Assembly (NCBI RefSeq): GCF_001649575.2
Contig: NC_051451.1
Span: 17,487,697 to 17,551,696, forward strand
Length of the DNA stretch: 64,000 nucleotides
Direction: 5' to 3'
Source: Kryptolebias marmoratus
Lineage: Eukaryota > Chordata > Actinopteri > Cyprinodontiformes > Rivulidae
Positions 4,955-17,320 of this stretch are shown piece by piece (positions within the stretch are counted from its first letter, which is position 1; each line of letters starts with the position of its first letter). The position numbers were made by a program, and so were the translations under genes. The notes under the pieces were generated by a model. It was not told where the DNA came from, ran no database searches, and saw nothing but the letters and a program-made list of their open reading frames with translations.

Positions 4955-5530
4955 CAGATGAAGTTATGAGGCTCTTTGATCCGGGAATCAAGCTTCGATA
5001 AATATTAAACAAAGAGCCCTTTTTACGCGCTCGTATTATGATATATGGCGTGTCCAAGTCTAGAATAAGGAAATTACCAGAGAAAATGATATCAATAAAT
5101 TTTCTAAGTATAAACGTTGATTATGTTTCGATTTTCATTCAAGAAAGCAGGAGCTGCTCTTTTTTCAGGAGGCGTTTTGTGCGCGTCCGTGCGTCCGTGT
5201 GTGTGTGTGTGTGTGTGTGTGTGTGTGTGTGTGTGTGTGTGTGTGTGTGTGTGTGTGAAAGAGAGGGAATGAGTGAGAGAGAGAGTTGTAAACGCAAGCA
5301 GAGCACCCGAGCCCTGGAGGTGTACAATTTATGTAATCTGAGTGTGGAAATGAACTGGGTAATTTATTGGAAAACACAAAGTCAGGAAGATTGGATCAGC
5401 ACAGCCTATCCAAGGGCTCCTATCCATCAAGTTCCAATTAACAACCTAACCATTGAGTTTTAATGGCTTTCCAATCTACTGCCCTGATAGACTCATCAAT
5501 TCCTCGGGGAGAAATTAAGAAAATCGACCG
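4955..5530. promoter_or_regulatory. Paralogous non-coding element A, upstream of hmx2 (putative enhancer)
   Basis: This block can be aligned by eye, collinearly, with 16765-17320 upstream of hmx3. Shared runs in the same order are: AGACAGATGAAGT; CGATAAAT followed by TTAAAC; CAATAAATTTTCTAA (from 5093); TTGATTATG; TTCGATTTT; CTGGAGGTGT; GTAATTTATTG; TAATGGCTTTCCAAT (5461-5475); and AATTAAGAAAATCG (5513-5526). The shared text has no open frame, so the constraint looks non-coding. It lies about 1.8 kb upstream of the hmx2 start. A GT microsatellite at 5197-5257 splits the block into two conserved halves. Enhancer function is inferred from its position beside a developmental homeobox gene and from retention after duplication. 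Confidence 0.72.
5197..5257. repeat. (GT)n microsatellite inside element A
   Basis: About 61 bases of GT repeat between the two conserved halves of element A. The matching position in element B is a non-repetitive G/C-rich spacer, so the repeat arose or expanded here after duplication. Confidence 0.97.
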
Positions 5531-8300
5531 CCCCTCGGCGTTTCGGTGTCATTCTTCACAGCAACTATATGTCAAATTAAAAACACAATTAAAATTTAAA
5601 CTGTTCCAATCAGACGGTGCTCCGCAACCTATGTTTCACTTAATAGAACTTTGATGAAAATCTGATGTTCGCATTCAATCAGGAAAGCAAATGGCGCGGG
5701 AATAAAAAACAAGATTTTCCTCTTCAAGAGTTGTCAAATGGACTTGTTCGAACTCGTGGGTTTTGACGCAGAGACGCGATGTTCTGGCATTACTTTTGTC
5801 TGGCTGGTGATCATTGATTGATCCGCAGAAGGATGCTGTTTTTGTTTGAAGCTTTTTTTAAAACATTTTTAATCAAATTTTACCAGAAGCAACCGGTCAT
5901 AGAACCGTTTAGAATAAACCTATTGCACGTTTTGCCCTAACGTTGCAAAAAAAAAAAAAAAAAACCCTCAGATGTGAGCAGACAGCAGCTGCAGAGAAAG
6001 AAGGTGAGCATTACGCAAGGTGCTCGGGTCACTTGTGGGTTTCCAGACTGGCACGGGGAGCCTGTGATAGGGCTGAAAATTACCCATTCATGCTCTCCAT
6101 TTTAATGCAACACGCTGAGCACCGTTCCCGGTCAAGTCCGTTTGTCCCCCCGTTCGCGCAAATGCCCTTTTTACATAAAGATGTCGCACAAATGGAAATT
6201 ATCGAGTGGTAATTTTTTTTTCAATTTATGCGCGCAAATCAAGGTCACGAGCTGAGCCGAAGAGCGCGCGAACGTTGCTCTTACTTGACGCAGCCGGAGC
6301 GCCGCAGACGTTCACAGATCGATACGTGCCAGAGGAATAATGCCATACTAATCTATTAATTTGCGGTAATGGGGCCGCGTTGAGTGTTCGTGGTAGGTGC
6401 GCGTCAATACTCGGGTGATCTGATGATATTTGAATGGAGCCTTTGTCTCCTGATGAGGTCATCATGGAGAGTTTATGCTGACTGATTAATTTCCAATAAC
6501 TGTATCAGTCTGCGGATGAAAACAGCGAATGTCCTCAAAGGTTGTTTTGACTGAGTGATGCACCTGCCGCTCAGCTGAGTTTACCCATCACCTCCTCCGT
6601 GGGGGGTTGACTTTCAGTTTGTAGTTTGCCAGCCTTTCAGGAAGCCCAAATACACAAGACAGAGCCTAAATATTTAAATCCAGTGAACTGAAAACTCGGG
6701 TCTTTAAAAACCACCAGTTTTGCGGCGTCAAGCGAGCACAATTTGCTCTTGTTTGTGTTTTAATTAAGCTGACGCCTCCTCGAATTACTGGGGAGATTTC
6801 CGCTCAGATAACAAAACAGTTTTTGAAACATAATTGTACACTTAAATAATTTCATATTACAAATTATTCAAAAGTATACTAACTATTGCAGTTTATAATT
6901 TGATTTGTGCTCAAATCCGCGGAGGATGACTGGAGAATACTTCCTGCTCCTGTAGACTTAAAGACGTTCAAATTTATATAAAAAACCAAAGATCATGCAG
7001 GTAAAAAAATAAATAAATAAATACATGCAGATCATGACTATAATCTGGCGTTTAATCTAAATCCTGTCAAAGATGATCTTTATCCAGTCGTGACTTTTGT
7101 TGTGTTTTCTGCTTTTGCATTAAACTGGTCACTTCTATTAAATAATTTATCGTCTGGAACCAAACCGGAAGTACTATCACAACACAGAAGCTCGTTCATT
7201 TTCTTTCATATTCAAATTATTTTGGACTATTCGTGATCATTCCAACTAACATCTGTAAAAAAAAAAAAAAGAATACCTCATCATTAGGCATGTTTTTAGT
7301 TCAATAACACCTGTAGGACCTAGTGTAACAAAATACAAGCTTATTAATTATGGATAATTAGATAAGTTATATTATTCTCTAACTTGGACAATCTACGTAT
7401 TTTAAAACACATGTTAAAGTAAATCATTAGGCATAGGATAAAAAAGGTATTATTTTCATTATTATTATTATTATTATTTACTAATTATAAAATAATTGCA
7501 GTTAATAGGATGTTTTAATGAGACTTTTAAACACACTTTTCTTCCTTTTCAGCGATTTTTTTCTTTTAAATTTCCCTCTGGTATCAGTATCAATATCTAT
7601 CTATCTATCTATCTATCTATCTATCTATCTATCTATCTATCTATCTATCTATCTATCTATCTATCTATCTATCTATCTATCTATCTATCTATCTATCTAT
7701 CTATCTATCTATCTATCTATCTATCTATCTATCTATCTATCTATCTATCTATCTAGCTATCTATCTAGCTATCTATCTATCTATCTATCTTACGTTAGGG
7801 TAATACAAATATTCTTTTAAAAGGAAATTCGCCCTGTAGAAATATTTTTAATACTTAAGTGTTTTTTTTTTAAATACAAAGAAGAAGAAAATAAAGGTGA
7901 CGGCTTGCTGTGAAAATAATTTTTTTTTTTTAAAAAAAAACAGAGGATACTTGCATTAGATTCTGGCAGGCAGAGAAGAAAAAAAAACATTAAAAACAGC
8001 AGCTTGGAGAATAATTTCCTCCTCAGAATACATTAGCCGTAATTTTGGAAAGATGGTGCCAATTACGCATGTAATTGACCGAGACACTCTTTATGTAAAA
8101 TAAGGTTTTGAAGTGCGCAACGCCAAAAGATGATTATAGAAACCCACCTGCTGTTGCTCCAATGAGTGTGCGTGCGTGTGCGCGGGCACGAGGTGCTGGA
8201 CTTTGAAAACAAACTGTTTTCTCAAACGTCTAATATTTAAACAGCAATTAAAACACTAAGTTTTTTAAGCATTTGACACAAAATAAGAATTAAAAAAATG
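5531..8300. other. hmx2-hmx3 intergenic region
   Basis: No coding sequence. The part from about 5990 to 6480 is less AT-rich, lacks simple repeats and holds several CpGs, which would suit regulatory sequence. From about 6830 the region is AT-rich with homopolymers and a 200-bp TATC microsatellite. Confidence 0.45.
7594..7790. repeat. (TATC)n tetranucleotide microsatellite
   Basis: About 197 bases of TATC/ATCT repeat with two interruptions to TAGC near its right end. All long Tyr-Leu-Ser-Ile frames here are repeat artefacts. Confidence 0.98.
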
Positions 8301-15600: not shown

Positions 15601-16764
15601 TATAACAAACAAACACCTGGAAAAGGGTTTTTATCTGTGTTTGTGTTTGCAATAACCTGACAGTATAAACCACAGGAAACAAATGTGCAAAAGTGAGGTG
15701 AATGAGTGCCATTTCATGTATTTTCCCAATATGTGTTGGTGAAAGGATTTTGTTTTTGTATCAGACATCATCTACATAAACAGCAGCATTTATCCCTGAA
15801 ACTTGTCCACATGTGTCCTTCTTGGCCTCTTTAACTGTCCATTCCAGCTGAAACAAGCCATTAAACAACGAAGGCCACTCTGAAATTGCTTAGATTTAAG
15901 TATTGCATTTAAAGGAATTAGTGGCCATCCACTGACCCGGCAAGCTTTAATTGGGATTGTGCAGGTATTGATTGTAAGTGGCCGTGTGAATCTTGAATTA
16001 CAGCCTGATTAACTTTTACTCGGCCCCTTGCACCAGCCAGTCGAAGAAGCTCAATGTCGTTCAGCTGTGCTTTGCAGAGGAATCTTGTTACTTTGTGTGT
16101 GAACAGGAAACAATGTGTATTTAAGATGAGGATGATATCTCTTATCTTAAATCAGACCTATCTTTCTGAAGTAATCAGAAAACATGTTGCTTGGCATGTA
16201 GCTATCAGACACATAAAATATATATTCTCCTTTTTATCTCTTCTGTTCTTGTTTTATCTGCATTTTATCACTTTTCCCTCTTTCTTTATTGTTTCTCAGC
16301 AGAGATAATGACCTCTGAAAGGTCTGGATGGAAACAGTCATGGGACTGATGTAGCTCTTTTTCTCCATTATGAGCAGTTTTATCAGAGCCCTCGGGGCGT
16401 CTAGCCTCAATGTCCATCCCCTGTTCCTCCAAAAACTCTTCCCTGGATTGTCAGCTTTTACCTGGCCTGCCTGTATGTGTCATTACAAGTCGGTAATCTG
16501 GAGAGGGTATAGCAGAAAAGTTCTCATCAGTGTCAGCCTGAGATATAGATATGGGCCGGGTAACAAATGGCCAAATGCACAGGCGGCAGAGCACACCATC
16601 AATAAAGCAATTTCTTGTGTCATAACAGCCACGCTTTTCCTAAAGCCAACCTTTCAAAAACTTTTCCCTCTGCAAATCGCTGCAGCCCCACCATTAGAGT
16701 CCTGCCTTGTGAATTTAATGGATTCCGTACAAATAATATTCCACTATAATGGAAAAGGTTGAAG
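12611..16764. other. Gene desert upstream of hmx3, proximal part
   Basis: No coding sequence is supported; the open frames are short with no family resemblance. Most is AT-rich (about 12640-13560 and 14100-15500). Two stretches are base-balanced, lack repeats and are rich in homeodomain-type ATTA/TAAT cores: about 13600-14060 and about 15780-16060. They are candidate conserved enhancers of hmx3, judged on composition only. A degenerate interspersed repeat lies at about 15095-15420. Confidence 0.4.
15095..15420. repeat. Probable interspersed fish repeat, degenerate
   Basis: The text around ccactggacagattttaat and the later part on Ala-like 'caagatgaccaccatc' and 'aaaatggctataactta' reads like a dispersed repeat known to me from killifish-type genomes. 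No terminal repeats or coding remnant were recognised, so the class is unknown. Confidence 0.4.
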
Positions 16765-17320
16765 TCACTGAAGACAGATGAAGTCATAAACATGTATAAT
16801 TGAGAATCAAAGACCGATAAATTTTAAACTGCTATCCATTCTCTGCTTTTTAGATGATGATATATGTCAGTGCGGCTGCAGGAAAATGGAAGAGATTATG
16901 GGGGAAAATTATAACAATAAATTTTCTAAACATACACCTTGATTATGCTTCGATTTTTTGGAAGGGTTGAGGGTGAGGGAGGGAGGGGGGGTTATAGAAA
17001 GAAAGCTGGGATTGCTGAAAGCTTGCTGGCTAAATGGCACCATAAAATAGGTTCCCTGCTCTTTTGCCTGCAGAGCGTAGGCATGCCTGGAGGTGTGATT
17101 TCCCCCCCACCTCCCCCTCTAAATGGGGGAAATGAATTGTGTAATTTATTGCAAACGTGCACACAGTGAGATTAGATCAGCATATCCCATCAAAGGAACA
17201 ACAATCAATCAGCCTCTAGTTAACAGCTTGAAACACATAAACCAGGGCACCTAATGGCTTTCCAATTTAACAGATTGATAGACTTATCCGGTCCTAAGGG
17301 ATGAATTAAGAAAATCGGGT
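16765..17320. promoter_or_regulatory. Paralogous non-coding element B, upstream of hmx3 (putative enhancer)
   Basis: This is the partner of element A at 4955-5530, in the same orientation relative to its gene and about 5.9 kb upstream of the hmx3 start. Matches in order include AGACAGATGAAGT (from about 16772), CGATAAAT, CAATAAATTTTCTAA across 16920, TTGATTATG, TTCGATTTT, CTGGAGGTGT, GTAATTTATTG, TAATGGCTTTCCAAT (17252-17266) and AATTAAGAAAATCG (17304-17317). The total lengths are nearly equal (about 575 and 555 bases). No open frame spans the shared parts. Regulatory function is inferred. Confidence 0.72.

What the first reader, a model, noticed from the sequence alone, without database searches (positions are those of the whole stretch)
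4955..17320. Paired non-coding elements upstream of hmx2 and hmx3
The blocks 4955-5530 and 16765-17320 share at least nine collinear motifs of 8-15 identical bases, in the same order and the same orientation relative to their genes. They have nearly equal total length and no shared reading frame. The simplest reading is that an enhancer was duplicated together with the ancestral Hmx gene and has been held under constraint in both copies since early vertebrate history. This would give two related enhancers able to drive overlapping hmx2/hmx3 expression. Upstream conserved elements at vertebrate Hmx loci have been reported; I cannot tell here whether these are the same ones.
Basis: partly seen in the sequence, partly recalled or inferred. 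Interest (0 to 1): 0.85.

Follow-up and report, generated by a model that had tools for sequence, protein, structure and literature searches.

The report
Duplicated hmx2/hmx3 enhancer pair
Two stretches of control DNA beside the sister genes hmx2 and hmx3 in an apparently fish genome are old copies of one another and fit what is already published about a duplicated switch for these ear- and nerve-building genes, so the finding is real but very probably not new.

Summary
Blocks 4955-5530 and 16765-17320 are paralogous non-coding DNA, with homology in two cores: 4951-5135/16771-16957 and 5346-5526/17128-17317 (69.5% and 68.6% identity; E 1.5e-18 and 4.1e-18 in a whole-window self-BLAST). The 200-base flanks and the central spacer align no better than shuffles. 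Both elements lie 5' of their gene in the same orientation, 1.8 kb from the hmx2 ATG and 5.9 kb from the hmx3 ATG. The only E-box (CAGATG) and the only two TGATNNAT motifs of each block sit at aligned positions. No shared reading frame, Rfam match or unusual RNA folding was found. Best reading: a pair of developmental enhancers from tandem duplication of an ancestral Hmx gene with its enhancer. This fits conserved non-coding regions reported at these positions (PMC7768253 passages), an hmx2 element active in zebrafish (PMC4489388 passages) and, from a recalled abstract of a paper I could not open, the duplicated Hmx enhancer pair of Papadogiannis 2022. Filed as already known. Sequence identity with the published elements, and copies at hmx1/hmx4, could not be tested: the genome search did not complete nine times.

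The parts
4951..5135 (.). Core 1 of element A (between hmx3 and hmx2, 5' of hmx2)
   Evidence: 69.5% identical to 16771-16957 over 190 columns, 91.1 bits, E 1.5e-18; E-box CAGATG 4955, TGATATAT 5039, CAATAAA 5093 at aligned positions
5136..5345 (.). Spacer of element A with a (TG)n microsatellite; not alignable with the spacer of B
   Evidence: alignment score -51.0, shuffles mean -34.0, sd 5.5
5346..5526 (.). Core 2 of element A
   Evidence: 68.6% identical to 17128-17317 over 191 columns, 89.7 bits, E 4.1e-18; TTTATTG 5363, TCAGCA 5396, reverse TGATNNAT 5422, CCAAT 5471, TGATAG 5485 at aligned positions
16771..16957 (.). Core 1 of element B (upstream of hmx3)
   Evidence: paralogue of 4951-5135
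16958..17127 (.). Spacer of element B, not alignable with the spacer of A
   Evidence: sequence read
17128..17317 (.). Core 2 of element B
   Evidence: paralogue of 5346-5526
1826..3181 (-). hmx2: ATG at 3181, homeobox exon, stop at 1826
   Evidence: PF00046 E 1.4e-21 on the frame 1826-2434; start codon placed; the name is recalled from protein resemblance and gene order
9187..10910 (-). hmx3: ATG at 10910, homeobox exon, stop at 9187
   Evidence: PF00046 E 2.7e-22 on the frame 9187-9846; homeobox exon 85.6% identical to hmx2 over 243 bases; start codon placed; name recalled

Best explanation
Elements A (4951-5526) and B (16771-17317) are a pair of paralogous developmental enhancers of the hmx2/hmx3 locus. 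They most likely arose when an ancestral Hmx gene and its 5' enhancer were duplicated in tandem in the vertebrate stem. Each is a bipartite module of two cores of about 185 bases. I propose that the cores bind proneural bHLH proteins (one E-box, CAGATG), HOX-PBX (two TGATNNAT sites) and further homeodomain, GATA and MAF-type factors, and loop to the neighbouring hmx promoters to drive overlapping expression in otic and lateral-line placodes, cranial ganglia, hindbrain and spinal cord. Shown here: homology, position, orientation, core/spacer anatomy and matched motifs. From passages of papers: conserved non-coding regions at these positions, and enhancer activity of hmx2- and hmx3-associated elements in zebrafish. 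Inferred: which factors bind, which tissues, joint duplication with the gene, and identity with the published pair.
For: In a self-comparison of the masked window at E<1e-3 the two core pairs are the only non-coding pairs in the Hmx region; a more sensitive comparison of 1-9100 with 9101-32000 adds nothing better than E 0.033, close to the best of the reversed-sequence control, E 0.089. Chance is excluded by shuffles and window controls. Edges are sharp: flanks and spacer are at shuffle level. Order and orientation of homeobox exon, first exon and element agree in both units. Each block has exactly one E-box and exactly two TGATNNAT motifs, all at aligned positions. No Rfam match in the window at gathering thresholds; RNA folding z-scores of 8 pieces (four core stretches of 145-148 bases, both strands) lie between -1.22 and 0.75; no shared reading frame. 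[quoted passage not shown] none near hmx3b (their data not shown). PMC4489388 (passages): zebrafish element hmx2.9713, chosen for a conserved TGATNNAT motif, drives a reporter in hindbrain and spinal cord. PMC1779573 (passages): an hmx3 element gave CNS-specific enhancement. PMC4302572 (passages): CRCNE00009716 ends about 4 kb from the Hmx2 start codon in a bat. PMC10909405 (passages): Neurogenin knockout abolishes Hmx expression in Ciona bipolar tail neurons.
Against: No orthologous sequence from another vertebrate could be aligned, so deep conservation is taken from papers. Fourfold-degenerate sites of the hmx2/hmx3 homeobox are 21 of 30 identical against 14.3 expected by composition, so great age is not shown by the genes; 30 almost wholly G/C-ending sites are too few to date them. 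The MEIS/PREP motif CTGTCA, which accompanies TGATNNAT in the published hindbrain syntax, is absent from both blocks (nearest copy found at 17346, 29 bases beyond core 2 of B). TGATNNAT and CAGATG are common (68 and 49 in the window), so single matches mean little. In PMC4489388 only 7 of 29 TGATNNAT elements first assayed worked as hindbrain enhancers. The looser control for block A reached 62.
Confidence: 0.85

Rival explanations
1. The enhancer alone was duplicated, independently of the Hmx gene duplication, and both copies serve both genes.
For: The distances to the genes differ (1.8 and 5.9 kb), no other non-coding stretch of the two gene units pairs up, and element A is also downstream of hmx3.
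Against: Same side, same order and same orientation in both units need only one event if gene and element moved together. Absence of other pairs is expected for unconstrained DNA of great age.
Confidence: 0.2
2. The two blocks are dispersed copies of an old mobile element, kept by chance or co-opted.
For: Paralogous non-coding DNA in two places is what repeats look like; genome-wide copy number could not be counted because the genome search did not complete.
Against: Only two copies in the 64-kb window, both at matching places beside sister genes and in the same orientation; homology is split into two cores rather than bounded by element ends.
Confidence: 0.03
3. Convergent assembly of similar binding sites in two unrelated enhancers.
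For: Several of the longest shared runs are AT-rich and resemble homeodomain sites.
Against: Two cores of about 185 bases each align end to end, far beyond shuffles and other pieces of the window; convergence is not expected to give fixed order and spacing over such lengths.
Confidence: 0.01
4. The blocks are conserved because they are transcribed (non-coding RNA or untranslated exons).
For: Conservation alone does not separate DNA function from RNA function.
Against: No Rfam match, no excess folding stability in 8 pieces, no shared reading frame, and positions 1.8 kb or more from the start codons. No expression data were available.
Confidence: 0.04

Closest known systems
Tandemly duplicated Hmx enhancer pair, Papadogiannis et al. 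2022, Nature 605:701 (paper not held; citation seen; abstract recalled, not read)
   Same: Two paralogous non-coding elements at a vertebrate Hmx locus; recalled as a unique tandemly duplicated enhancer pair regulating Hmx in the stem-vertebrate lineage. PMC11034925 (passages) cites it for CNEs, including duplicate ones, conserved with lamprey.
   Different: Nothing known to differ; sequences could not be compared. This is a copy in another, apparently teleost, genome, with a microsatellite inside the spacer of A.
Three conserved non-coding regions at zebrafish hmx2/hmx3a (Wotton et al. 2010, as described in PMC7768253, passages)
   Same: One between hmx3a and hmx2 (fits A) and two upstream of hmx3a (B fits one of them).
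   Different: The passage does not say that any two of the three are copies of each other; the second upstream region was not located here.
CONDOR CNEs hmx2.9713 (PMC4489388 passages) and CRCNE00009716 (PMC4302572 passages)
   Same: Hmx2/3-proximal elements shared by fish and mammals; 9713 has a conserved TGATNNAT motif and is active in hindbrain and spinal cord; 9716 lies a few kb upstream of Hmx2.
   Different: No sequence compared; which CONDOR element corresponds to A or B is unknown.
HMX1-ECR, the dumbo rat / crop ear / microtia enhancer (PMC7302384 abstract and passages; PMC3896894 passages)
   Same: Conserved enhancer of another Hmx gene, of similar size (about 300-600 bp), with HOX/PBX/MEIS sites.
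   Different: Lies far downstream of HMX1; sequence relationship to A or B not tested.

Membership tests
Duplicated vertebrate Hmx enhancer pair (Papadogiannis 2022, definition recalled) | Two paralogous non-coding elements beside Hmx genes, same orientation | tested here: met
Conserved non-coding regions at hmx2/hmx3a (PMC7768253) | One element between hmx3 and hmx2, another upstream of hmx3 | tested here: met
   gene positions; published positions
Duplicated vertebrate Hmx enhancer pair (Papadogiannis 2022) | Sequence orthology to the published elements and presence in lamprey and shark | not testable with these tools
   paper not held; no vertebrate collection available
Duplicated vertebrate Hmx enhancer pair (Papadogiannis 2022) | Enhancer activity in cranial sensory ganglia or placodes | not testable with these tools
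   needs a reporter assay
PBX-HOX/MEIS hindbrain enhancer syntax (PMC4489388) | TGATNNAT motif, conserved | tested here: met
   two in each block, at aligned positions 5039/16858 and 5422/17204; conserved between the two copies, not tested between species
PBX-HOX/MEIS hindbrain enhancer syntax (PMC4489388) | MEIS/PREP motif CTGTCA close by | tested here: not met
   none inside either block; none within 4900-5600; one at 17346, 29 bases beyond core 2 of B
HMX1-ECR | Sequence homology to the 32-bp HOX-PBX-MEIS core | not tested
   no HMX1-ECR sequence was available to compare
Mobile element | Many dispersed copies | tested here: inconclusive
   only two copies in the 64-kb window; genome-wide count not obtained
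Structured non-coding RNA | Known RNA family or unusual folding stability | tested here: not met
   no Rfam match in the window at gathering thresholds; z-scores -1.22 to 0.75 in 8 pieces

The most novel reading that the evidence does not exclude
The pair preserves a specific regulatory grammar: one CAGATG E-box at the gene-proximal edge and two HOX-PBX sites at fixed places, split over two constrained cores around a freely drifting spacer. Each core would be a separable input (a proneural sensory-ganglion core and a hindbrain/axial core) that both copies have kept since the vertebrate stem, if the published dating applies to them.
Probability: 0.2. Interest if true: 0.45.

Novelty: already known. 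Interest (0 to 1): 0.22.

Why it matters
Enhancer pairs duplicated with their genes are natural experiments in how control DNA evolves, and Hmx is tied to the origin of vertebrate sensory ganglia and to ear development. As far as I recall it, the published pair already carries that message; this copy adds a clear map of two constrained cores and a loose spacer in another genome, useful for dissecting which half does what.

Tried and rejected
Chance similarity of AT-rich DNA: rejected. Shared coding frame: rejected. RNA element: no support. Further paralogous elements between the two gene units: none found; below the three strong pairs the best hits of 1-9100 against 9101-32000 start at E 0.033, against 0.089 for the best of the reversed-sequence control (the 14 best real hits were printed). 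Dating by fourfold sites: uninformative. Search for stray vertebrate DNA in viral contigs and prokaryote genomes with two spaced patterns built from the shared motifs: 0 hits in three scans (viral; 57 prokaryote); an expected blank that says nothing about vertebrates. Copies at hmx1/hmx4 or elsewhere in this genome: not obtained.

Motif names (GATA, MAF, HOX/CDX, SOX, POU and others) are recalled consensus strings, not database matches. TGATNNAT and CTGTCA were seen defined in PMC4489388, E-box CANNTG and CCAAT box in PMC10735318.

Papers: no passage that I saw states outright that these two elements are copies of each other; that rests on my recalled abstract of Papadogiannis 2022. Searches found 0 held papers. 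Of the 15 papers opened by passage or section, four gave nothing on these elements: PMC13292956 and PMC10973136 only list the reference, PMC9859826 has none of the four terms, PMC6504108 has no enhancer of hmx3a. The deep-conserved HMX3 enhancer of PMC10735318 could not be matched to A or B.
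Full report
What was checked. The window carries two homeobox genes on the minus strand. The frame at 1826-2434 has a homeodomain (PF00046, E 1.4e-21) and its gene starts at 3181; the frame at 9187-9846 has one too (E 2.7e-22) and its gene starts at 10910. Further right lie a C2H2 zinc-finger frame (33085-34056), a serpin frame with an angiotensin-like N terminus (50135 on; angiotensinogen by recall) and COG2 (frames between 53.8 and 60.6 kb, minus). The names hmx2 and hmx3 and the teleost origin rest on protein resemblance and recalled gene order (IKZF5 near HMX3-HMX2 in human), not on a database hit.

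The observation. A self-comparison of the window, with 1204 bases of simple repeat masked, at E<1e-3 gives the homeobox exon pair 1962-2204/9335-9577 (85.6%, 249 bits), the two core pairs (69.5%, 91.1 bits, E 1.5e-18; 68.6%, 89.7 bits, E 4.1e-18), matches within a tandem-repeat and CUB-exon region at 40.0-45.3 kb, and one 65-base inverted repeat at 37591/39428. The blocks share 19 exact runs of 8 bases or more: 12 on the core diagonals, 3 in order within the spacer, 4 off the diagonal. The local score of 61 compares with mean 11.8 and maximum 19 in 1000 dinucleotide shuffles. Core scores of 62 and 61 compare with maxima of 17 and 20 over 2000 window pieces. One looser control gave a score of 62 for block A against a piece at 44522; it did not recur under stricter repeat masking with cores only and is put down to the TG/GA repeats of A, though that alignment was not inspected.

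Anatomy. Each element has two cores of 181-190 bases around a spacer of 210 (A) or 170 (B) bases. The 200-base flanks and the spacer align at or below the level of 300 mononucleotide shuffles, while the cores stand far above it (63.0 against -19.8, sd 5.4; 66.5 against -23.8, sd 5.0). The spacer of A holds a (TG)n microsatellite. Since drift has erased everything around and between the cores, the cores have most likely been held by selection in both copies. Within 4900-5600 and 16700-17400 there is one E-box per block, CAGATG at 4955 and 16775, and two TGATNNAT motifs per block, at 5039/16858 and 5422/17204; all three pairs are at aligned positions. Other aligned motifs are CAATAAA/TTTATTG, TCAGCA, CCAAT and TGATAG (factor names recalled). 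CTGTCA is missing from both blocks.

Origin. Element A lies 1.8 kb and element B 5.9 kb upstream of the start codon of its gene, in the same orientation. One tandem duplication of a gene with its 5' element explains this most simply. No other non-coding stretch pairs up convincingly between the two units, as expected if the rest was unconstrained. Fourfold sites of the homeobox (21 of 30 identical, 14.3 expected) do not date the event and give no sign of saturation.

Function. Protein-coding and structured-RNA explanations found no support. [quoted passage not shown] PMC4489388 (passages) reports zebrafish element hmx2.9713, chosen for a conserved TGATNNAT motif, active in hindbrain and spinal cord; 7 of the 29 elements first assayed worked in hindbrain. 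PMC1779573 (passages) reports a CNS-active hmx3 element. PMC4302572 (passages) places CRCNE00009716 about 4 kb from the Hmx2 start codon in a bat. PMC10909405 (passages) states that Neurogenin knockout abolishes Hmx expression in Ciona bipolar tail neurons, which makes the single conserved E-box a natural candidate for proneural input; that link is my inference. PMC10735318 (section 4; passages) reports an HMX3 enhancer conserved beyond vertebrates; whether it is one of these elements is unknown.

Comparison with the known. The decisive paper, Papadogiannis et al. 2022 (Nature 605:701), is not held; I saw only its citation and recall from its abstract that a unique, tandemly duplicated enhancer pair regulated Hmx expression in the stem-vertebrate lineage. 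PMC11034925 (passages) cites it for elements, including duplicate ones, conserved with lamprey; PMC10696661 (passages) cites it for three lamprey Hmx paralogues of unclear orthology. Position, number, orientation and paralogy fit. Sequence identity with the published pair is untested, so membership is very likely rather than proved. Nine attempts to search the rest of this genome did not complete, so copies at hmx1/hmx4 and the genome-wide copy number remain open.

Verdict.

Noticed in passing
41118-42748, weaker copy at 44704-44822: Tandemly repeated segments (offsets of about 375 bases and multiples, 70-92% identical; the outlying copy 66-71%) in a region with CUB-domain frames on the minus strand (39431-39805 and 44870-45094 by Pfam).
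   Followed up: partly
37640-39416: Piece of an LTR-type retroelement on the + strand: aspartyl protease by Pfam in 38273-39091, CCHC knuckle and reverse-transcriptase-like stretch by eye, next to an assembly gap (Ns at 37733-37938).
   Followed up: no
37591-37655 and 39364-39428: 65-base inverted repeat at 98.5% identity near the two ends of the retroelement piece.
   Followed up: no
33085-34056: C2H2 zinc-finger frame on the + strand, Ikaros-family-like (IKZF5 by recall), fitting the recalled human gene order around HMX3.
   Followed up: partly
50135-51939: Serpin frame whose N terminus contains an angiotensin-like peptide by eye (angiotensinogen by recall), beside COG2 frames on the other strand.
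   Followed up: partly
61624-61851: THAP-domain frame on the + strand (PF05485, E 1.9e-12), perhaps from a transposon-derived gene.
   Followed up: no
17500-17700: Stretch just beyond element B that, by eye, reads like a further conserved element; PMC7768253 mentions a second conserved region upstream of hmx3a. Not testable without another vertebrate.
   Followed up: no
about 7593-7791 and about 2830-2910: Long microsatellites: a (TATC)n run between the genes and an (ATT)n run at the start of the hmx2 intron.
   Followed up: no
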